Shown in pieces: positions 1 to 49,087 of a stretch of DNA of 64,000 bases. The stretch spans positions 1 to 64,000 of the forward strand of contig NZ_JACCBY010000004.1 of NCBI RefSeq assembly GCF_013409985.1, in the 5' to 3' direction. A program made the translations under genes and the position numbers. The notes beneath the pieces were generated by a model. That model had not been told where the DNA came from and did no database searches. It was given only the letters and a program-made list of their open reading frames with translations. This stretch comes from Sphingomonas melonis. Its GTDB lineage: Bacteria; Pseudomonadota; Alphaproteobacteria; Sphingomonadales; Sphingomonadaceae. Each line of letters begins with the position of its first letter. Within the stretch, counting starts at the first letter, position 1.

Positions 1-18
1 CTCAAAGCCCAAAAGTGT

Positions 19-95
<77 letters not shown>

Positions 96-106
96 TTCAC
101 CACATC

Positions 107-135
107 CGCCGCCCCAAAGGGCGGCGTTGTCGTTT
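107..135 (+). terminator. intrinsic terminator after tRNA-fMet
   Basis: An 8-bp perfect stem (CGCCGCCC at 107-114, GGGCGGCG at 119-126) with a 4-base loop is followed by the T-rich TTGTCGTTT. It lies 11 bases after the tRNA CCA end and before the convergent gene ending at 164. Confidence 0.8.
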
Positions 136-163
136 GTGGCACACGTGCTTTCTGCGCGCGCCG

Positions 164-1198
164 TTACACCTGCTCACGGTGGTCGAGCAGATCATCCGCA
201 GCGGCCCTCCCCCGCAGCCCCGTGTCGAATGGATAAGCGATCTCGACCCATTGCGCTTCCGCGTCGGATGTCCCCGCGTACAGCCGCGTCACCGAGCCGA
301 GGCATTCGATGCCCGACGAGAAGACGACATCGACGAGGTCGGCCCGTTTCGCCGGCCCGGGCGCGAACTGATCGCGCGCTGCTATGATGCGATAGTCGCG
401 CCATTGCCGCGTCGCAGGGTCGAAGACGAACGCCACGGCATAATAGCGCCGTACGCCGTACAGGATGTCGTCAACATAGTAAGCGGCGTGCGCAATGAGG
501 CCGATCTCTCCCGTTTCGAGCAGATGCGCCTCGTTCACTCCGCCCCAATCGAGCGGGTGGAACATGTCCTCCAGCATCGGCGCGGCGTCGATCGCTTCTA
601 TGGTCAGTGCATCCAGCGTCGCGACCTCGGTATAGCCGATCGTGCCGCGGCCGCCCTTCGCGCCACGCGGACGGGTGAAGACGGCGATCCGTCCGTCGGC
701 AAGCTCGCACAGGCGGATGTCCTTCATCCCGATCGGTCCGGAGAAGCACGGCCGCAGCGTGAGGATGTCGCTGCCCCGATAGAAGTTCGTTCTCCAGAAC
801 AGCGTGCCGTCGACATGGCCGACCTCGACGCCGCCGAACACGAGATCGCCGGAAATGTGGGTGACGAACGGGTCTTCCAGCCGGAAGCGCGGCGCGCCGT
901 CGACCGGGTGCCAGATGCCGTCGCGCTCCTCGAAGAAGACGGCGATGGAGTCCTGGCTGTCGCGGGCCTCGACCCGCCCGGCAATGATCCGGCGGCCCGC
1001 GGAGACGAACGGCGCGGTGATGTTGTAGACGTCCCGCCCGTCGACGCCGGCGAAGACGAGCTTGCCGGTTCGCGGCGGCGTCGCTGCCCGGTCGGCGGCG
1101 AACGCCTCGTACAGCGTCTTGACGCGGGTGATGGTGCTGCGATCCACGTGGTCTTCCCCTTGCCGGTCGGCGCCAAAGCCCGTCGCGGCGGCTGTCAT
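164..1198 (-). CDS. DUF1861 family protein (GH130-like beta-propeller, probable glycoside-active enzyme)
   Basis: A 344-residue soluble protein without signal peptide. Blocks such as RLEDPFVTHI, GMKDIRLCELADGRIAVFTR, GGRGTIGYTE, WGGVNEAHLL and DAEAQWVEIA match my memory of DUF1861 proteins. These are predicted five-bladed propellers resembling GH130 mannoside phosphorylases; the activity is not established here. The ATG at 1198 overlaps the stop of the upstream permease in an ATGA, so this is the last gene of a five-gene transporter operon. The context suggests it handles the imported oligosaccharide in the cytoplasm. A longer reading upstream would run inside the permease gene and was rejected. 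Confidence 0.8.
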   Translation of the reverse strand: MTAAATGFGADRQGEDHVDRSTITRVKTLYEAFAADRAATPPRTGKLVFAGVDGRDVYNITAPFVSAGRRIIAGRVEARDSQDSIAVFFEERDGIWHPVDGAPRFRLEDPFVTHISGDLVFGGVEVGHVDGTLFWRTNFYRGSDILTLRPCFSGPIGMKDIRLCELADGRIAVFTRPRGAKGGRGTIGYTEVATLDALTIEAIDAAPMLEDMFHPLDWGGVNEAHLLETGEIGLIAHAAYYVDDILYGVRRYYAVAFVFDPATRQWRDYRIIAARDQFAPGPAKRADLVDVVFSSGIECLGSVTRLYAGTSDAEAQWVEIAYPFDTGLRGRAAADDLLDHREQV

Positions 1199-2052
1199 TT
1201 GAGGGTCAACGCCATACCCTGGAGGAAGTGGCGGCGGAACAGGATGAACAGCATGACGAGCGGTAGCGTCTGGAGCACGGCCCCCGCCATCACCGGGCCG
1301 GCATAGCCGCCATATTGCTTGCTGAACGTCGCCAGCAACACGGACAGCGGCATGCGGTCGGTGTCCGAGATGGTCATCAGCGGCCACAGGAAATTGTCCC
1401 AGGTGCCAGTGAAGGTGAACAGCGCGACGATGGCGATGATCGATGCGTTGAGCGGCACGACGACCTTCATCACCATCTGCCACAGGCTGGCGCGATCGAG
1501 CCGCGCGGCGTCGAGGAACTCCTCCGGCATCGCCTTGAACGACTGCGACATCATGTAGATGCCCCAGCCCGACATCATCGCGGGGAAGATCAGCGCGCCG
1601 AGGGAATTGAGCAGGCTGAGTTGTTTGATGAGGACGAACAGGGGCAGGATGAACAACGTCGTGGGGATGACCATCTGAATCAGCAGAAAATCGCCGAACA
1701 ATCGGCGTCCGGGGAAGCGCAGGCGGGCCAGCGCGAAGGCGATGAAGGCGGAGGTGAGCAGCACCGAGGCGGTGACGCTGAGCGTCACGATCGCGGAAAT
1801 GCCCAGCGCCTGGAGGAACGGACGGTGGAGCTTGTCGGCGGTGGCGAACAGGAAGCGGAAATTGTCGAAGGTGAAATCCCCCTCGAACAAGGCGGTGGTA
1901 TAGATCTGCCCGGTCGGCTTGAGCGACGCCGCGACCATCCAGGCGAAGGGATAGAGCCAGGTCAGCGCCAGCGCGTAGATGGCGACCGTCGCCGCCCAGC
2001 CGCCCGGAGTACGCGAGCGCAGCAGGCGTGTGATCCGATCGCGTGTCATCAT
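1195..2052 (-). CDS. carbohydrate ABC transporter permease (MalG type)
   Basis: A 285-residue inner-membrane protein with about six hydrophobic segments. The cytoplasmic EAA loop appears as PEEFLDAARLDRASLWQMV, followed by the family pattern TWDNFLWPL. It belongs to the MalG-like permeases of CUT1 sugar importers and would pair with the upstream MalF-like permease and the ATPase encoded at 6809-7894. The ATG at 2052 overlaps the stop of the preceding permease by four bases (ATGA). A second ATG directly follows at 2049. The stop overlaps the start of the DUF1861 gene. Confidence 0.93.
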   Translation of the reverse strand: MMTRDRITRLLRSRTPGGWAATVAIYALALTWLYPFAWMVAASLKPTGQIYTTALFEGDFTFDNFRFLFATADKLHRPFLQALGISAIVTLSVTASVLLTSAFIAFALARLRFPGRRLFGDFLLIQMVIPTTLFILPLFVLIKQLSLLNSLGALIFPAMMSGWGIYMMSQSFKAMPEEFLDAARLDRASLWQMVMKVVVPLNASIIAIVALFTFTGTWDNFLWPLMTISDTDRMPLSVLLATFSKQYGGYAGPVMAGAVLQTLPLVMLFILFRRHFLQGMALTLK

Positions 2053-2930
2053 GCCAGCGTGACCTTTCGTTCGAACAGGCGCCGCGCCGCGAGGATCAGC
2101 AGATAGCTGGCGAGCGAGACGAGGATGCTCATCATCGCCGCATGGCTCGGCTGAAGACGGCGGAAGGCGGTTTCGTAGATCATCATCTGCGGCGTCACCG
2201 TGCTGTCGGCGGGACCGCCGCCGGTGATCAGGAAGGGTTCGGTGAACAGCCCGAACGACACCAGGATCGCGAAGATCAGCACCATCATCAGCTGCGGGTT
2301 GATCATCGGCAGCGTGATGCGGACCAGCCGGGTGAGCGGCCGGGCATGATCGAGCCGCGCGGCATCGTAGATCTCGCCGGGGATGGCCAGCAGGCCCGAA
2401 TAGAGGATCAGCCCGTAATAGCCGACGAACTTCCACGCGACGACCAGCGCGATCGCGAGCATCGCCAGCGTCGGATGGTTCGTCCACGGGATGCGGACGC
2501 CGAACCAGCTGGCCATCGTCGCGTTGAGCGGACCCGTCGAACTGAAGATCTTGGTGAACACCAGCGACACCGCGACGCCCGACGACACGTTGGAGAGCAG
2601 GAAGCACAAGGCGATGAACGCCCTGCCCCGCCCGACGTGACGCAGTCCGAAGGCGACGACCAGCGCCCCCCCGAAGGCAAGCGGCAGGTAGAAGCCGAGG
2701 AAACGCACCACGTTCCACATCGCCTGCTGGAATTGCGGGTCCTGCACGGTGACGATCAGGTTGCGCGCGCCGGTGAAGACCGGTTCGTCGAAGAAGCGCC
2801 ATTGCGTCACCGACAGGCGGGCGAGCCAGACGAACGGATAAGCCCAGAAGATCGCCGCGAACACCAGATAGGACAGCGCCAGCGATGCGCCGATTACCGC
2901 CTCGCGCGACCAGCGGACGCGGCGGCTCAT
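2049..2930 (-). CDS. sugar ABC transporter permease (MalF type)
   Basis: A 293-residue membrane protein with about six transmembrane segments. Its EAA-type loop reads PGEIYDAARLDHARPLTRLVRITLP (split here: PGEIYDAARLD then HARPLTRLVRI), followed by a membrane segment and EPFLITGGGP, typical of MalF/UgpA-like CUT1 permeases. It overlaps both neighbours by four bases, so translation is probably coupled from the binding protein through both permeases. The substrate cannot be read from the sequence. Confidence 0.92.
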   Translation of the reverse strand: MSRRVRWSREAVIGASLALSYLVFAAIFWAYPFVWLARLSVTQWRFFDEPVFTGARNLIVTVQDPQFQQAMWNVVRFLGFYLPLAFGGALVVAFGLRHVGRGRAFIALCFLLSNVSSGVAVSLVFTKIFSSTGPLNATMASWFGVRIPWTNHPTLAMLAIALVVAWKFVGYYGLILYSGLLAIPGEIYDAARLDHARPLTRLVRITLPMINPQLMMVLIFAILVSFGLFTEPFLITGGGPADSTVTPQMMIYETAFRRLQPSHAAMMSILVSLASYLLILAARRLFERKVTLA

Positions 2931-4201
2931 GCCTGCACCGCCAGCCTGCGGTCGGTCCGCGCGACCGCGTCGGCGAGCGCCGCGGCGGGCGGCATCCGTC
3001 CGCTCATCAGCGGTTCGACCAGGTTCGTCGTCATGATCTTCTGGATATCGATCGTATGTTCGCTGAGCGCCGGCGGTTTTGCGGTGGCGACATGGTCGGC
3101 ATAGGCGCGCGCGATCGGGTTGGCGCGGTAATAATCGGCGAAGCGCGGGTTGCGGAGCAGGTCGCCGCGTGCCGGCGACAGGCCCGTCCGCCGCAGCCAG
3201 AGCAGATTGAGATCCTCTTCGCCCAACACCCAGGACAGGAAGGCGAAGGCGGCATGCGCGACGCGGCTGCTCTTGAAGATCACGACGCCCTTGCTGTCGG
3301 AGAAGGTCGCGGCGGAGGCGTCGCGCGCGACGATCGGCCCCGCCGCGATCCGCGCCAGCGTGTCGGGATAGATTTTGGCGAACCGCTCGACGTCCCATGG
3401 CCCGCGCACTGCCCCGGCGGCGAGCCCCGAGACGAGCGGTTCCTCCGCGTCGAAGTCCATCGCGGTCCAGCCGCGGCGGAACATGCGGTCCATGAAGCCC
3501 GCCGCCTGCAACCCCGCCGCATTGTCGTACAGCGCATGCGCGCCCTGGAGATACGGCCGCCCGCCCGAGGCGGCATAATAAAAGGAGATGAAGTCGAACC
3601 AGCGGTCCGCCCACGACCGCCCTGCCACCACCTGCATCGCATAACGCTGGCGCGCGACGCCATAGCGTTCGGCGAAGGCATAGACGTCGTCATAGGTCCG
3701 CGGCGGTTCGCCGAAGCCGTGCTGTTCGAGCAGGTCCTTGCGCCACCAGATCAGCGTCGGGCTGGAATAGATCGGCAAGGCGCTGACCCGGCCGTCCTGC
3801 GTCCAGCCGGCCAGCACCGCACCCATGTCGCGCCGCGCGATCAGCGCGTCATAGCCGGGCATCGCCGCCAGGTTCTCGACCTGCCCGAGCGTGGCGAGCT
3901 GGACCGCGAAGCCGGAAAAGACGTTCGTGCACAGATCGGGCTCGGTCCCGGCGACCAGCGCGGACAGGACGGTATCTTCGGAACTGCCCGCGGTGGGGAT
4001 GGTCGTGAAGCTGACCGGCAGGCCGCGGCCGAGCGCATTCCACCGTGCCACGGCGATCGTCCAGAACCCCTCCTCCGCATCGTTGGGCGCGACCCACAGG
4101 CGGATGCGGTCGGTCCGCTTCTCGTTGCGCCCGGACGAACATCCGGCGAGCAACGCAAGGCCGCCGGCGCCGAGCCGCAGCACGCCGCGCCGCGCGATCA
4201 T
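2927..4201 (-). CDS. ABC transporter extracellular sugar-binding lipoprotein
   Basis: A 424-residue family 1 solute-binding protein. The N-terminus MIARRGVLRLGAGGLALLAGC has twin arginines, a hydrophobic stretch and a lipobox LLAGC with Cys21 as lipidation site, suggesting a Tat-exported periplasmic lipoprotein. Internal features such as GTEPDLCTNVFSGFAVQLA, LPIYSSPTLIWWRKDLLEQ and FSDSKGVVIFKSS fit UgpB/MalE-like proteins. It overlaps the downstream MalF-type permease and the upstream enzyme gene by four bases each. It would deliver an oligosaccharide, probably one entering through the nearby TonB receptor. Confidence 0.92.
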   Translation of the reverse strand: MIARRGVLRLGAGGLALLAGCSSGRNEKRTDRIRLWVAPNDAEEGFWTIAVARWNALGRGLPVSFTTIPTAGSSEDTVLSALVAGTEPDLCTNVFSGFAVQLATLGQVENLAAMPGYDALIARRDMGAVLAGWTQDGRVSALPIYSSPTLIWWRKDLLEQHGFGEPPRTYDDVYAFAERYGVARQRYAMQVVAGRSWADRWFDFISFYYAASGGRPYLQGAHALYDNAAGLQAAGFMDRMFRRGWTAMDFDAEEPLVSGLAAGAVRGPWDVERFAKIYPDTLARIAAGPIVARDASAATFSDSKGVVIFKSSRVAHAAFAFLSWVLGEEDLNLLWLRRTGLSPARGDLLRNPRFADYYRANPIARAYADHVATAKPPALSEHTIDIQKIMTTNLVEPLMSGRMPPAAALADAVARTDRRLAVQA

Positions 4202-5577
4202 GGCAATGGCGTCCCGTTGAGCGCGGTCAGCGCGAGCAGGCCCTCCACGGTCGATTCAGCCCCCGAATTGGCGTTCACGGTGGCCGGGTCGGCGATGCCG
4301 TCGAACACGCGGCCGCTGACCGGATCGTAGAGCGGCTGCCCGGCGACGTTGCTGCCCGAGAACCAGGCGAACAGGCGGCGCGCGGTGGCGCGATAATGCG
4401 GCTTGCCGGTGACGCGATACGCCTCCATCGCGGCGAGGACCATCGGGCTGAGCCCATAGGCGATCTGCGGGAAGTGGACGCCCCAGGCCGGATCGAACCG
4501 CCCTCCCCTGCCCCCGTCCGTGCCGCGCTTCACGTCCTCGCCCCCGGTCGTGCCGGGATGCTCCTCCCCGCCCCCCTTCGGGTCGAGCGAGAAGCTGGAG
4601 AGCATGCCGTGTTCGAGCAGATAGGGATAGAAATGGTCGACCTCGCGCAGCGCGCTGGCGGTGAAGTCGGGCCGGTCGAGCAGCGCACCGGCGCGCAGCA
4701 GCGCATAGGCCTGTGCATTGCCCCAGCCGTGCCAGACGTTGCGCCAGCTGCGATAGGCGCCATAGGGGAAGCGCGTGGCGTCCCCCGCCTGCATCCGCAT
4801 CAGTCCCTCGCCGAGTTTCTCGATCAGCGTGCGCGTCCCGGCGGCGCCGGTGCGCTGGTAATGCGCGATCAGGCCGAGCATCGCGGTCGATCCCGCGTCG
4901 GCGCCGGAGCCGAACGGCAGCCAGATCGGCGCGGTGCTGTCGCCGGTCATCGTCGGGTCGGCGGGTTGCGCGGGCAGGTCCACCTCCAGCCTGGCGACGA
5001 GCCGGTCGGCCGCGGCGCGGGCGCGGGCGGCGGTGGGGCCATCCGCGGGCAGCCGCCGCAGCGCCGCCTCCAGCCCCCACAAGGCGCGTAGCGACCACCA
5101 GTTGAGCTCGGCACGCGAGGTCCGGTATTCGCGGTTGATACGCCCGCCGGCCCAGATGAAATTGTGGAAATAGCCGTTGTCCGCCTGCATGCGGACGACG
5201 AAGCGCGTCATCAGGTCGAGCTGGCGCAGGCGCGCCGCATCGAGCGTCGCCGGCGCGGCGAGCAGCACCATGGCGCGCGCGACATCGTCGACACAGGCAT
5301 AGCCCTCGCGCGGCTCGATCGCGAAGCGATAGTCCGGCGCCTCGCTGTAGATGTTGAGCACGCCGACCTGCTCGCCGCCGACCGTTGCCTCGGCAAAGAG
5401 GTGATTGACATGGCGCAGGCTGACGGCGACGGGTGGCTCGGCGACCGCCGCCGAGGACGAGGAGAGGAAGGCGGTGGGCCGCGGCGTGGCGCAGGCGAAG
5501 CACAGCAGAAGGGGAAGCAGCGTCGCGCCCCGCACCATGCGTGCGGCATTCAATCTGGCGTCACGCGCACCGACCAT
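4198..5577 (-). CDS. predicted (alpha/alpha)6-barrel glycosidase-like lipoprotein
   Basis: Up to 459 residues. An internal ATG at 5538 gives MVRGATLLPLLLCFAC, a better signal with a lipobox (LCFAC), and may be the real start. The mature part has the signature GYACVDDVARAMVLLA and repeated helical hairpins (AELNWWSLRALWGLEAAL, NVWHGWGNAQAYALLRAG). It resembles the (alpha/alpha)6 domain with a GHYTxDDNARAL motif found in some glycosyltransferase fusions and glycan-processing proteins. It is first gene of the transporter operon and overlaps the binding-protein gene by four bases. A periplasmic role in trimming or binding the imported glycan is inference. Confidence 0.65.
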   Translation of the reverse strand: MVGARDARLNAARMVRGATLLPLLLCFACATPRPTAFLSSSSAAVAEPPVAVSLRHVNHLFAEATVGGEQVGVLNIYSEAPDYRFAIEPREGYACVDDVARAMVLLAAPATLDAARLRQLDLMTRFVVRMQADNGYFHNFIWAGGRINREYRTSRAELNWWSLRALWGLEAALRRLPADGPTAARARAAADRLVARLEVDLPAQPADPTMTGDSTAPIWLPFGSGADAGSTAMLGLIAHYQRTGAAGTRTLIEKLGEGLMRMQAGDATRFPYGAYRSWRNVWHGWGNAQAYALLRAGALLDRPDFTASALREVDHFYPYLLEHGMLSSFSLDPKGGGEEHPGTTGGEDVKRGTDGGRGGRFDPAWGVHFPQIAYGLSPMVLAAMEAYRVTGKPHYRATARRLFAWFSGSNVAGQPLYDPVSGRVFDGIADPATVNANSGAESTVEGLLALTALNGTPLP

Positions 5578-5620
5578 CCGCTGCGATCATCCTCTCGGGC
5601 CCATGATTAACAAGTGGCTG

Positions 5621-5634
5621 GTTTAACGTTAAAC
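5621..5634. promoter_or_regulatory. LacI-family operator in divergent promoter region
   Basis: A perfect 14-bp palindrome GTTTAACGTTAAAC with the central CG step typical of LacI/PurR operators. It lies between the minus-strand transporter operon (first codon 5577) and the LacI-family gene (5697). A near copy occurs at 7927-7940 before the TonB receptor gene. Confidence 0.75.
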
Positions 5635-5696
5635 AGCGGCGGTTGTGCGTGTCAACCGGCCCCGCTAGGCTGTTGAAAAGCGGGATCGACCACCGA

Positions 5697-6808
5697 ATGG
5701 ATCGACCCGTGGGGAGGATCGGGACGGTGCGGGCGAAGCGGGCAACCTTGAAGTCGATCGCGTCCGACCTCGGCGTGACGCATACCTCCGTCTCCAACGC
5801 CTACAACAATCCCGCCAAGGTGTCGGCAGCGTTGCGCGAGCGCATCTTCGCGCATGCCCGCACCGTGGATTACGACGGCCCCCACCCCGCCGCACGCTCG
5901 CTGCGCACCGGCCGCTGCGGCGCGATCGGCGTCGTGTTCAATGACTCGCTGAGCTACGCCTTCATCGACCCGCACGACATCGCCTTCCTCCGCGGCGTCG
6001 CGACGGTATGCGAGGAGGCGGGCGCGAACATCGTCCTGATCCCGCTCAATGCCAGGGACGCCGGCCGGATCGACACGCTGACCGCGCTGGTCGACGGCTA
6101 TATCTTCAACGCGCCCTATCGCAGCCATCCGGTGATCCGGAAGGCGCTGGCGCGCGGGCTGCCGACCGTGCTGGTCGATTTCGCCGCGCCCGAGGATGCA
6201 CCGGGCCATGCGAGCGTCCTCACCGACGACCGGGCGATGATGCGCGCCGTCGTCGCGCACCTGCTGGCGCTGGGCCATGTCGATGTGGGGATCGTCACCT
6301 TCCCCAGCACGGAGGGGCATGACGCGATCCTCGCGCTCGATGCCGAGGTCTCCGCGGACAATCATGTGGTGTACGAACGGATCATGGGCTGCCGCGACGG
6401 CTTCGACGCCGCGGGGATCGCGCAGGCCGGCGTGCTGGTCTGCGAAACGACGAACAGCGAGGCGGGCGGCCGGGCCGCCGTCGCGCGCCTGCTGGCGCGC
6501 CGCCCGGGCCTGACCGCGCTGGTCTGTTTCTCCGACCGGCTGGCGCGCGGGGTGATCGCGGGATGCGCGGCGCGCGGGCTGGCGGTGCCGCACCGGATGT
6601 CGGTCACCGGCTTCGACGGGATCGAACCGGCCGGCGGCGCGCCGGGGGCGCTGCGCCTGACCACCGTCCGCCAGAACGCGTTCGACAAGGGGCGCAGCGC
6701 CGCCGAATGCCTGTTGCGCGCCGGCGCCGACCCGCGCGCGCAGATCCGCATCGCCGCCGAATTCGTCGTCGGCGAAACCAGTGCCGAAGCGTGGGCGTTG
6801 GACGGGCG

Positions 6809-6812
<4 letters not shown>
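5697..6812 (+). CDS. LacI-family transcriptional repressor
   Basis: A 371-residue regulator. The N-terminal helix-turn-helix (about residues 15-50; ATLKSIASDLGVTHTSVSNA) and hinge (HPAARSLRTGRCGAIGVVF) lead into a periplasmic-binding-like sugar-sensing domain (TALVCFSDRLARGVI, MSVTGFDGIEPA). I chose the ATG at 5697; an in-frame start at 5643 would place the N-terminus almost on the operator. It diverges from the five-gene sugar operon and its stop overlaps the ATPase start (ATGA at 6809-6812), so repressor and ATPase are co-expressed. It probably binds GTTTAACGTTAAAC and is released by an imported sugar. Confidence 0.93.
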
Positions 6813-7894
<1,082 letters not shown>

Positions 7895-7926
7895 GCCGGC
7901 CGATCTGGCGGCTTGCACGCCTTTGT

Positions 7927-7940
7927 GTTGATCGTTAAAC
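7927..7940. promoter_or_regulatory. second LacI-family operator before the TonB receptor gene
   Basis: GTTGATCGTTAAAC matches the palindrome at 5621-5634 in 12 of 14 positions and keeps the half-site CGTTAAAC intact. It is 72 bases upstream of the receptor ATG at 8012, a position suited to repression. Confidence 0.65.
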
Positions 7941-8011
7941 CTAATGATCCGTTGAGGACCTATATTCAAACAATGGATGCGGTCGCCATCGGACAACAGG
8001 GAGAGGGTGGC

Positions 8012-10738
8012 ATGACGGCCGCACAGCGTATGCGTTTGCTTGGCGTGGCCGGGATGGCCACGGTTCTGATCGCGACGATGCCCGCATCGGCGCAGGAGCG
8101 CGAGGCCCCTGCCCCTGTGCCCGCCCCCGCCCCTGCCGAACCTGCACAGGCGCCTGCGCCCGCCGCCGCGGTGCCCGCCGAGGACGGCCAGAGCGGCGAG
8201 ATCGTCGTCACCGGCCTGCGCGAGAGCCTGAAGCGCGCGGTCGATATCAAGCGCGCCGCGCCCAATATCGTCGATTCCATCGTCGCCGACGACATCGGCA
8301 AGCTGCCCGACCAGAATATCGCCGAGGCGATCCAGCGCATCCCCGGCGTCACCATCTCGCGCGACAATGGCGAGGGGCAGTTCATCACCGTCCGCGGCCT
8401 CGGCCCCGCGTTCAGCACCGCGCTCTACAACGGCCGCATCCTCGCCACCGAGAATGCCGGCCGCGAGTTCAGCTTCGACATCCTGCCCGCCGAGCTGATC
8501 AACCGCGTCGACGTGTCCAAGACGCCGACCGCGTCGCAGGTCGAGGGCGGCATCGCCTCGACCGTCGACATGTACACCGCGCGGCCGTTCAACTTCGACG
8601 GCACGAAGGTCGTCGTCTCGGCGCAGGGCAATTACGACCGGCTGCGCGGCCAGGCCTCGCCGCAGGCGTCGGGCCTGTTCAGCACGACGCTGGCCGACGG
8701 CCGGTTCGGCATCCTCGGCGCGATCTCGTACATCGATCGCAAGATCGAGGGGCGCCGCATCTTCACCGACGGATGGGAAGCCAACCAGACGCTCGACGTC
8801 AACAAGGACGGCACCCCCGACTTCCGCGGCGTGTCGATCCCGACCTATGTCGAATATGGCGTCAACAGCACCAGCCGCAAACGCCTGTCTGGCCTGGCGA
8901 CGGTGCAGTGGAAGCCGAGCGACACGCTGCAGCTGACGCTCGACGGCCTGTATTCGAAGCTCGACGTCAACGACGATAACAAGGTGTTCTTCGTCTATGG
9001 CAGCCCGGCGGACGTCACCGCCGCGACCGTCGACAAGAACAACACGGTGACCAGCTACACCGGCATCGGATCGGGGCCGACCATCACCAACCAGGTCCGC
9101 CCGCGCCTCGCCACGACCTATGAGGCGGGCCTCAACCTCGAATGGAAGCCGATGGCGGAGCTGTCCGGCTTCGTCGACCTGTCGTGGTCGCGGGCGACCG
9201 ACGACACCGGCGGCAACCAGGCGTGGTTCGAGTCCAACCTCGCCACCCCCAGCTATTCACCCGCCGCGGTCAAGTTCAACCTCAGCAAGGACGGCCTGCC
9301 GGTCTATACCGGGCTCGGCAATATCCTCGACACGTCGAACGCGCGCGCCGGCTATTCGACGCTGGAAGGCGTCAGCATCGCGGACGAGATCTACCAGCTC
9401 AACTCGCAACTGAAATATGTGGCGGACGCCGGGCTCTTCCGCGGCCTCACCGTCGGCGTGAACTATTCGGACCGCAAGAAGGACCGGTCGTCCTACAAGA
9501 CGCCCGACGCGCTCCAGAGCGTGTTCACCGGCGTGCCCTATCCGCAGAGCGTGTTCGGCAAGCCGGCGGACGCCGCCGACCTGTTCGACGTCGGCATGTT
9601 CCCGGGCGGCTTCCCGGCCTATGCGATCGCCGACCTGCAGACGTATCTGCTGAGCGACACGGCGATCAATGCCACCGCCAACCCGGCCGCGACGCGCGCG
9701 CTGCTGGCGGCGAACGGCGGCGGCTTCGGCGCGGTGCTGGTGCCCGGCAACAGCGGCTCGGCGCAGGAGCGCACGATCGGCACCTTCGTCCAGGCGGCGT
9801 TCGGCGGCGACATCGGCACGCATGCCTGGTCGGGCAACATCGGCCTGCGCTTCACCAAGACCAACGTGGTCTCGCGCGGGTTCGGGCAGGAGATCCTGAG
9901 CATCACCACCCCGCCGGGCCTGGACCCGATCGTCAACCTGTCACCGGCGCAGCCGATCACCGCCAGGGCCTCCTATGCCGAGCTGCTGCCGAGCGCGAAC
10001 GTCAAGATCGACGTCGTCAAGGACGTCGTCTTCCAGGCGGCGGTCGCCAAGACGCTGACGCGCGCGACGTTGAGCGACCTCCTGCTGATCCGCAACATCA
10101 ACCCGCGACCGCGTGAGCGCGCGATCACCGACGGCAATCCCGGCCTCCAGCCGATGATCGGCTGGAACTATGACGCGGCGCTGACCTGGTATCTCGACCG
10201 GTCGAGCTATTTCAGCGTCGCCGCGTTCCAGAAGGATCTGTCGAACCTGAGCGAGACGGTGACCAGCACGATCCAGGTGCTCGGCCTCGACTTCCGTCGC
10301 ACCCGGCCCGAGAATATCGGCGGCCGCTCCTATCGCGGCATCGAATTCTCCGGCCAATATACCTTCACCGGCCTGCCCGCGCCGTTCGACGGGCTCGGCC
10401 TTCAGGCCAACGTCAGCCTCGTGAAGCCGGATGCGACCACCTACAACGTCGTCGGTTTCTACGAAAAGGGCCCGATCCAGCTGCGCCTGGCCTATAATTA
10501 CCGCAACGCCTACCAGCAGACGCTCGCCGGCAATCGCGGCCAGCCGGTCGACGTGGCCGCCTACGGCATCTGGGACGCGAGCTTCAACTATGCGCTCAAC
10601 GACCACGTCACGGTCTTCGCGCAGGGCCTGAACCTGTTCAACGAGAAGACCTTCCAATATTCCGTGTTCGAGGAACGGACGATCACCTACGAGACGTACG
10701 GACCGCGGTTCGCGTTGGGCGTACGGGCCAACTTCTGA
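8012..10738 (+). CDS. TonB-dependent receptor, sugar type (TonB-Xanth-Caul family)
   Basis: A 908-residue outer-membrane receptor. The ATG at 8012 follows the ribosome site GGGAGAGGG and gives a signal peptide ending PASA-Q; an earlier in-frame start at 7913 would add an unlikely extension over the operator. After a Pro/Ala linker come the TonB-box-like EIVVTG and the plug (KLPDQNIAEAIQRIPGV, ITVRGLGPAFSTALYNGR), followed by a 22-stranded-type barrel ending in ...ALGVRANF with terminal Phe. Plug sequence fits the Xanthomonas/Caulobacter oligosaccharide receptor family. It probably carries the glycan across the outer membrane to the binding lipoprotein at 2927-4201. Confidence 0.94.
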   Translation: MTAAQRMRLLGVAGMATVLIATMPASAQEREAPAPVPAPAPAEPAQAPAPAAAVPAEDGQSGEIVVTGLRESLKRAVDIKRAAPNIVDSIVADDIGKLPDQNIAEAIQRIPGVTISRDNGEGQFITVRGLGPAFSTALYNGRILATENAGREFSFDILPAELINRVDVSKTPTASQVEGGIASTVDMYTARPFNFDGTKVVVSAQGNYDRLRGQASPQASGLFSTTLADGRFGILGAISYIDRKIEGRRIFTDGWEANQTLDVNKDGTPDFRGVSIPTYVEYGVNSTSRKRLSGLATVQWKPSDTLQLTLDGLYSKLDVNDDNKVFFVYGSPADVTAATVDKNNTVTSYTGIGSGPTITNQVRPRLATTYEAGLNLEWKPMAELSGFVDLSWSRATDDTGGNQAWFESNLATPSYSPAAVKFNLSKDGLPVYTGLGNILDTSNARAGYSTLEGVSIADEIYQLNSQLKYVADAGLFRGLTVGVNYSDRKKDRSSYKTPDALQSVFTGVPYPQSVFGKPADAADLFDVGMFPGGFPAYAIADLQTYLLSDTAINATANPAATRALLAANGGGFGAVLVPGNSGSAQERTIGTFVQAAFGGDIGTHAWSGNIGLRFTKTNVVSRGFGQEILSITTPPGLDPIVNLSPAQPITARASYAELLPSANVKIDVVKDVVFQAAVAKTLTRATLSDLLLIRNINPRPRERAITDGNPGLQPMIGWNYDAALTWYLDRSSYFSVAAFQKDLSNLSETVTSTIQVLGLDFRRTRPENIGGRSYRGIEFSGQYTFTGLPAPFDGLGLQANVSLVKPDATTYNVVGFYEKGPIQLRLAYNYRNAYQQTLAGNRGQPVDVAAYGIWDASFNYALNDHVTVFAQGLNLFNEKTFQYSVFEERTITYETYGPRFALGVRANF

Positions 10739-48991: not shown

Positions 48992-49087
48992 GGAAAGTCT
49001 CCTTCTTGTCCCCGGCTATTTCGCAACACTACGCACCCTGTTAAACTAGTGACCTTATCGTGGTATAACATTCAACAGGATGCGGTC

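What the first reader, a model, noticed from the sequence alone, without database searches (positions are those of the whole stretch)
5577..8012. One palindrome links a sugar ABC importer and a TonB receptor to a LacI repressor
The perfect palindrome GTTTAACGTTAAAC lies between the five-gene ABC operon and the LacI gene. A 12-of-14 match is 72 bases before the TonB receptor ATG. Sphingomonads usually pair sugar TonB receptors with MFS permeases; here both layers of import use a complete CUT1 ABC system, with DUF1861 and an (alpha/alpha)6 lipoprotein of unknown activity. This suggests an undescribed oligosaccharide system.
Basis: partly seen in the sequence, partly recalled or inferred. Interest (0 to 1): 0.62.

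Follow-up and report, generated by a model that had tools for sequence, protein, structure and literature searches.

The report
Repressor-controlled sugar uptake operon, probably beta-mannan
A DNA switch shared by an outer-membrane receptor, a sugar importer and their repressor is conserved across many Sphingomonas species, and the neighbouring enzymes suggest that the system feeds on short chains of beta-1,2-linked mannose.

Summary
GTTTAACGTTAAAC (5621-5634) and its 12/14 match (7927-7940) are the only places within 2 mismatches in the 4.41 Mb genome. The same arrangement, TBDR-ATPase-LacI diverging from exported (alpha/alpha)6 protein-SBP-permeases-(GH130)-DUF1861, occurs in 19 further Sphingomonas-type loci. 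The motif lies between LacI and the first operon gene in 20 of 20 loci and before the receptor in 19 of 19 that show it. Of 16,384 palindromic 14-mers it ranks first. Two loci fetched afterwards passed as a held-out test. Shewanella, Yersinia and Serratia orthologues have near-identical LacI helices and similar sites.

The substrate can be predicted. DUF1861 matches the Leishmania MPT/MTP (GT108) beta-1,2-mannan enzymes. The GH130 in most sister clusters is closest to beta-1,2-mannobiose phosphorylase Lin0857. Among 19 judgeable loci either enzyme can be missing, never both. Most likely this is a LacI-repressed, TonB- and ABC-driven beta-1,2-mannooligosaccharide scavenging system. The (alpha/alpha)6 protein's activity is unproven; nothing here is experimental.

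The parts
5621..5634 (.). Operator O1, perfect palindrome GTTTAACGTTAAAC
   Evidence: conserved in 20 of 20 Sphingomonas-type loci; ranks first of 16,384 palindromes
7927..7940 (.). Operator O2, GTTGATCGTTAAAC, before the TonB receptor
   Evidence: conserved in 19 of 19 loci that show the receptor region, 17 within 2 and 2 at 3 mismatches
5650..5655 (-). TTGACA, likely -35 box of the leftward operon; the -10 would fall inside O1
   Evidence: TTGACA ends exactly 15 bases before the operator in 20 of 20 loci; the generic promoter scan found nothing
4198..5577 (-). Exported (alpha/alpha)6-barrel protein, homologue of 7TEM; putative periplasmic glycan-acting enzyme
   Evidence: no Pfam or NCBIfam match
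2927..4201 (-). CUT1 solute-binding protein
   Evidence: SBP_bac_8 / SBP_bac_1; best solved relative Lmo0859, 4GQO
2049..2930 (-). ABC permease 1 (start inferred within the ORF 2049-3614)
   Evidence: BPD_transp_1, UgpA-like
1195..2052 (-). ABC permease 2 (start inferred within the ORF 1195-2802)
   Evidence: BPD_transp_1, GlcU/UgpE-like
164..1147 (-). DUF1861 protein, GT108-like putative beta-1,2-mannoside phosphorylase (GTG start inferred)
   Evidence: PF08950; Leishmania MPT-1, -2, -4; conserved D96 and F161-P164 in 24 relatives
5727..6812 (+). LacI-family repressor (GTG start)
6809..7894 (+). MalK/UgpC-type importer ATPase, overlapping the end of lacI
8012..10738 (+). TonB-dependent receptor
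   Evidence: TIGR01782 596 bits, cut-off 310; Plug and barrel domains

Best explanation
A single-locus LacI regulon for scavenging beta-1,2-linked mannooligosaccharides. Without substrate the LacI protein sits on two operators that overlap the likely -10 regions of the leftward operon and of the receptor gene and keeps both off; O1 may also control lacI-ATPase. When the inducer, probably a beta-mannoside or a product of it, enters the cell, repression is lifted. The receptor brings oligosaccharide through the outer membrane, the exported (alpha/alpha)6 protein trims or remodels it in the periplasm, and the CUT1 ABC importer takes it into the cytoplasm. There the DUF1861 (GT108-like) enzyme, in most sister species together with a GH130, phosphorolyses it to alpha-mannose 1-phosphate and mannose. 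Shown by computation: sites, gene order, families, homologies, co-occurrence. Inferred: repression, inducer, substrate, reaction direction, role of the (alpha/alpha)6 protein.
For: Sites: only two places in the genome within 2 mismatches; present at both positions in the Sphingomonas-type loci (20 of 20 and 19 of 19) and in two held-out loci; first of 16,384 palindromes, 19 of 19 and 16 of 18 regions within 2 mismatches. Outside the locus 16 genomes show 11 matches against 11 for the control, so the regulon looks local. LacI gene and motif co-occur: 11 of 15 against 9 of 186 genomes, Fisher 4.7e-10. TTGACA exactly 15 bases before O1 in 20 of 20 loci. LacI helix THTSVSNA in 19 of 20 Sphingomonas-type loci, THTTVSNA in Shewanella, Serratia and Yersinia with like sites, SKNSVSQA in Fictibacillus L045 without sites. 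Substrate: DUF1861 matches Leishmania MPT-1, -2, -4, which act on mannogen, a beta-1,2-mannan (PMC8950772); the sister GH130 matches Lin0857 at E 8.7e-103, a beta-1,2-mannobiose phosphorylase; the two enzymes seem to stand in for each other. Of 51 loci with the (alpha/alpha)6 gene, 48 have GH130 or DUF1861.
Against: No binding or expression data. The sister loci are related, so conservation partly reflects descent, and the sites seem to double as -10 elements, which alone could conserve them. O2 is an imperfect palindrome. DUF1861 relatives in Leishmania also act as GDP-mannose transferases, so a synthetic role is not excluded. GH130 as a family also holds beta-1,4 and beta-1,3 specificities. 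I know of no reported ligand of Lmo0859, the nearest solved SBP. No mannose kinase or phosphomannomutase was seen in the cluster.
Confidence: 0.72

Rival explanations
1. The regulon is as described but the sugar is another beta-mannoside (beta-1,4, beta-1,3 or a mixed N-glycan or plant mannan fragment).
For: GH130 holds several linkages; Uhgb_MS, the second nearest solved relative of the sister GH130, also uses other acceptors.
Against: Nearest solved relatives of both enzymes act on beta-1,2 links, and beta-1,4 enzymes score far lower: Lin0857 8.7e-103 against 9.3e-33 for the beta-1,4-mannooligosaccharide phosphorylase.
Confidence: 0.17
2. The conserved sequence is a promoter element or the site of another regulator, and LacI acts elsewhere.
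For: The site lies where a -10 box would be, 15 bases after an invariant TTGACA; O2 is not a perfect palindrome.
Against: Symmetric around a central CG; tracks the LacI gene (11 of 15 against 9 of 186 genomes); similar palindromes in Yersinia and Serratia loci in three copies, which a promoter would not need; LacI helices match.
Confidence: 0.06
3. The cluster serves synthesis or turnover of the cell's own beta-mannan, with GT108-like transferase activity, rather than scavenging.
For: Leishmania enzymes of this family are dual transferase-phosphorylases.
Against: A complete importer and a receptor under the same sites point inward; the window has the FTRPR stretch of MPT-4 and not FTHFR of MPT-2 (reading of these residues inferred).
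Confidence: 0.08

Closest known systems
Thermoanaerobacter beta-1,2-mannoside phosphorylase cluster (Teth514_1785-1796; PMC4264767, passages seen)
   Same: ABC sugar importer beside enzymes that phosphorolyse beta-1,2-oligomannan to alpha-mannose 1-phosphate
   Different: Two GH130 enzymes and GDP-mannose genes; in the passages seen no TonB receptor, LacI operator pair, DUF1861 or (alpha/alpha)6 protein is named
Leishmania mannogen MTP/MPT enzymes, CAZy GT108 (6Q4W-6Q50; review PMC8950772, passages seen)
   Same: DUF1861 sequence family; conserved Asp that is mutated in entry 6Q4Z; MPT-4-like FxRPR stretch
   Different: Bacterial, in an uptake operon; activity untested
Lin0857 beta-1,2-mannobiose phosphorylase of Listeria innocua (GH130, 5B0P)
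   Same: closest solved relative of the GH130 in the S. hankookensis sister cluster
   Different: no close homologue in the window or its genome; best hits 33-38% identity
7TEM, putative exported protein YPO2471 of Yersinia
   Same: 39% identity, same fold; other Yersinia species have it with LacI, SBP, permeases, GH130 and DUF1861 (L038, L040, L042)
   Different: I found no reported activity; in those Yersinia loci the sites lie between LacI and the SBP gene and no TonB receptor matched in the fetched stretch
TonB-receptor carbohydrate loci of Xanthomonas/Caulobacter type (PMC1790865, listing and start of abstract only)
   Same: outer-membrane receptor tied to sugar genes
   Different: here the inner-membrane step is a complete CUT1 ABC importer

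Membership tests
LacI-family repressor with palindromic operator | LacI HTH plus periplasmic-binding-like effector domain | tested here: met
   Peripla_BP_3 64 bits (cut-off 26.5), LacI HTH 26.7 bits, E 4.7e-6, just under its cut-off 27; the S. hankookensis orthologue is annotated LacI family
LacI-family repressor with palindromic operator | even palindrome with central CG (pattern recalled) near own gene and targets, conserved with orthologues | tested here: met
LacI-family repressor with palindromic operator | DNA binding and release by an effector | not testable with these tools
   needs protein
CUT1 ABC importer | SBP, two permeases, MalK-type ATPase with OB/TOBE domains | tested here: met
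GT108 / DUF1861 | sequence family of the Leishmania MPTs, with the Asp mutated in entry 6Q4Z | tested here: met
   (D96 invariant in 24 relatives)
GT108 / DUF1861 | beta-1,2-mannan phosphorylase or transferase activity | not testable with these tools
   assay needed
GH130-based mannoside utilisation locus | GH130 (PF04041) in the cluster | tested here: not met
   absent from the window cluster; genome hits only 33-38% identical and on other contigs; present in 16 of 19 judgeable Sphingomonas-type loci
7TEM-type (alpha/alpha)6 family | sequence and fold similarity over the whole domain | tested here: met
   (Z 55.3, rmsd 1.7, 382 aligned)
AGE-type 2-epimerases | catalytic histidine pair (recalled) | tested here: inconclusive
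   fold match Z about 31, rmsd 3.0, about 339 aligned; H56 and H283 are the only histidines listed as kept in 95% or more of 43 relatives; active sites were not superposed
GH76 / GH9 glycoside hydrolases | fold and catalytic acids | tested here: inconclusive
   GH76 Z about 26, GH9-type about 27; catalytic residues not mapped

The most novel reading that the evidence does not exclude
A TonB-dependent, LacI-controlled regulon for beta-1,2-mannooligosaccharides in which a bacterial relative of the Leishmania mannogen enzymes can be the only dedicated phosphorylase, together with an exported (alpha/alpha)6 enzyme family, found from sphingomonads to Bacteroidetes and Anaerolineae, that acts on beta-1,2-mannan and has no assigned glycosidase family.
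Probability: 0.5. Interest if true: 0.68.

Novelty: new variant of a known kind. Interest (0 to 1): 0.55.

Why it matters
It gives a testable function to DUF1861, which Pfam still labels unknown, and to an (alpha/alpha)6 family with a solved structure but no activity that I found. It ties both to beta-1,2-mannan, a polymer known from Candida cell walls and Leishmania stores. It also offers a compact two-operator regulon whose prediction held in two loci not used to make it, and a natural experiment (GH130 lost in some species, DUF1861 in another) on whether two different phosphorylases do the same job.

Tried and rejected
Searching family, class and phylum samples with the (alpha/alpha)6 protein (1 of 298, 1 of 385, 1 of 398 genomes, in each case only the window's own) first suggested a near-private system. 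Those samples held few genomes of the genus. The named scan (where 80 pattern matches gave 51 relatives in 50 loci, so possibly capped) and the genus search with LacI (15 of 201) showed it to be patchy but widespread.

A wider regulon was looked for and not found: 41 matches within 2 mismatches in 16 Sphingomonas-type genomes, 30 in the locus and 11 elsewhere, against 11 for the reversed control. In the four gammaproteobacterial genomes the background is too high to judge (33, 23, 20, 26 against control 22, 4, 19, 26), and four of the five gammaproteobacterial loci (L037, L038, L040, L042) also hold a few 3-mismatch matches elsewhere. Nine of 186 genus genomes without the LacI gene do have a match within 1 mismatch.

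The third window match at 49063 was dropped as chance. The generic promoter scan found no promoter at either site; near O2 it found one terminator-like site on the minus strand, which I did not use. Assigning the (alpha/alpha)6 protein to GH76, GH9 or the 2-epimerases was rejected as unproven: all are distant fold matches.

Rows dropped: L015 (same species and cluster as L004) was left out. L014 and L020 end inside the cluster and were not used to judge GH130/DUF1861 content. In one search the three loci without GH130 or DUF1861 are L014 and L049 (contig ends) and L046, whose GH130 matches of 62-85 bits fell under my 90-bit limit.

Papers: ten of ten searches used. The Leishmania MTP paper (PubMed 31513773) is not held. 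The LacI regulon survey PMC4052901 was searched for terms only; its main text has no hit for Sphingo, Yersinia or TonB. PMC4599007 (GH130 beta-1,2-mannosidases) and PMC2631605 were seen in passages.
Full report
What is in the sequence. Reading outward from O1 (5621-5634): leftwards an exported (alpha/alpha)6 protein, a sugar-binding protein, two permeases and DUF1861, all overlapping or close; rightwards LacI, an overlapping MalK/UgpC-type ATPase, then O2 (7927-7940) and a TonB receptor. The importer is therefore complete, but its ATPase is encoded with the repressor, not with the rest of the importer.

Is it more than chance. A scan of named genomes with the (alpha/alpha)6 protein gave 50 loci, and a plasmid of S. 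hankookensis one more. Window plus L004-L022, 20 Sphingomonas-type loci (L008 is labelled Bacillus; L015 is the same species and cluster as L004; some are cut by contig ends), share the arrangement. The site lies between LacI and the (alpha/alpha)6 gene in 20 of 20 within 2 mismatches, and before the receptor in 19 of 19 that show that region (17 within 2, two at 3). The only other match within 3 mismatches in these 20 sequences is the window's 49063. The only one near it, GTTTATCGATAAAC (17 and 16), is its own 2-letter variant. In the genus, 15 of 201 genomes have the LacI gene at E 1e-80 or better and 20 have a match within 1 mismatch. The overlap is 11 of 15 against 9 of 186 (Fisher 4.7e-10; genomes are related, and several are the same as the named loci). 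Two of the four LacI genomes without such a match were new to me. Fetched as L066 and L067, each holds exactly two matches within 3 mismatches, at the two expected places. The other two correspond by coordinates to L007 and L009, whose LacI-side sites have 2 mismatches.

How the switch probably works. On the leftward strand a TTGACA ends exactly 15 bases before the operator in 20 of 20 loci, so a -10 element 17-18 bases on falls inside it; before the receptor a TTG-type element stands similarly (by eye). A LacI protein bound there would block RNA polymerase. Shewanella L030 has one site between LacI and the (alpha/alpha)6 gene and two just before the region that aligns with a TonB receptor. 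One Serratia and three Yersinia loci have three sites, 32 and 67-72 bases apart, between LacI and the SBP gene, besides a few weaker matches elsewhere. What I take, from recall, as the LacI recognition helix reads THTSVSNA in 19 of 20 Sphingomonas-type loci (PTSVSNA in L007) and THTTVSNA in these Gammaproteobacteria. In Fictibacillus L045 it reads SKNSVSQA, and that locus has no site. Outside the locus the motif is at background in 16 genomes, so the regulon looks local.

What it eats. Most sister clusters have one gene that the window lacks, a GH130 between the permeases and DUF1861. For the S. hankookensis one the closest solved relative is Lin0857 (E 8.7e-103), then the mannoside synthase Uhgb_MS (1e-73) and 1,2-beta-oligomannan phosphorylase (4e-47); the beta-1,4-mannooligosaccharide phosphorylase is at 9e-33. 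DUF1861, called unknown in Pfam, matches Leishmania MPT-2, MPT-4 and MPT-1 at E 1.1e-48 to 1.3e-45. A review seen in passages (PMC8950772) places these in GT108, dual transferase-phosphorylases of mannogen, a beta-1,2-mannan, with the same five-bladed fold and mechanism as GH130. The Asp changed in the MPT-2 D94N entry is kept in the window (D96), and the window's FTRPR resembles MPT-4 (phosphate complex) rather than MPT-2 (FTHFR). D96 and FTRP are invariant in 24 relatives, while the last Arg is Gln in the 7 from outside Sphingomonas. The functional reading of these residues is inference. GH130 is missing from the window, S. aracearum (L005) and S. corticis (L010), on two separate branches, with no close GH130 elsewhere in those genomes (best 32-38% identity). 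L067 has the GH130 and no DUF1861 in its genome. Of 19 loci that can be judged (window, L004-L013, L016-L019, L021, L022, L066, L067), 15 have both, 3 only DUF1861, 1 only GH130, none neither. That is what overlapping functions would give. The precedent is Thermoanaerobacter, where an ABC importer and two GH130 beta-1,2-mannoside phosphorylases form one cluster and the same uptake-and-phosphorolysis route was proposed (PMC4264767, passages).

The exported protein. It has no Pfam or NCBIfam match. It is a homologue of 7TEM (E 5.5e-73), and the model (pLDDT 85) matches 7TEM at Z 55, then 2-epimerases at about 31, then GH9-type and GH76 enzymes at 26-27. Of 51 loci with its gene, 48 have GH130 or DUF1861 nearby and 41 an SBP plus two permeases. 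In Anaerolineae L050 it is fused to a CBM9-like domain. A periplasmic enzyme that trims beta-1,2-mannan is the likeliest role (my estimate 0.55); an isomerising or binding role is open.

Known or new. Each kind of part is known. The combination (LacI operators at importer and TonB receptor, CUT1 importer, GT108-type enzyme, 7TEM-type protein) did not turn up in my ten searches of open-access papers, a library that lacks most subscription journals. I file it as a new variant of a known kind, phosphorolytic mannoside uptake. My confidence in the LacI link is about 0.93, and in beta-1,2-mannooligosaccharide as substrate about 0.75.

Noticed in passing
L058:1243-4890 (own genome, contig C3): A GT4 glycosyltransferase with an (alpha/alpha)6-like C-terminal part is followed by a GH130. 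A Devosia neptuniae plasmid (L060:3218-7597) has the same pair behind a mannose-6-phosphate isomerase. Possibly a separate mannoside synthesis or turnover module.
   Followed up: partly
L023-L029, L031-L033, L035 (Bacteroidetes loci): These carry the (alpha/alpha)6 gene with one to three GH130 matches and, in all but L026, an SBP and two permeases of ABC type, which I recall as unusual for that phylum.
   Followed up: no
L048, L050, L051: In Anaerolineae the (alpha/alpha)6 protein is 804-851 aa long; in L050 the extension holds a CBM9-like domain.
   Followed up: partly
L004: In S. hankookensis SZ.B2R2 the whole cluster lies on a 90 kb plasmid.
   Followed up: no
L008: A contig labelled Bacillus sp. 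2B10 carries the cluster at Sphingomonas-like identity; probably mislabelled.
   Followed up: no
L037, L038, L040, L042: Three site copies spaced 32 and 67-72 bases between LacI and SBP genes suggest multiple binding on one face of the helix in Serratia and Yersinia.
   Followed up: partly
L057:1462-2583 (own genome, contig C1): Another GH130, distantly like Lin0857 (E 8e-27), lies beside an ORF that looks like an alpha-glucosidase by eye; it might supply a second mannoside phosphorylase.
   Followed up: partly
window 1-163: The window starts at base 1 of contig C4, 163 bases after the DUF1861 stop, so whatever follows this operon is not seen.
   Followed up: no
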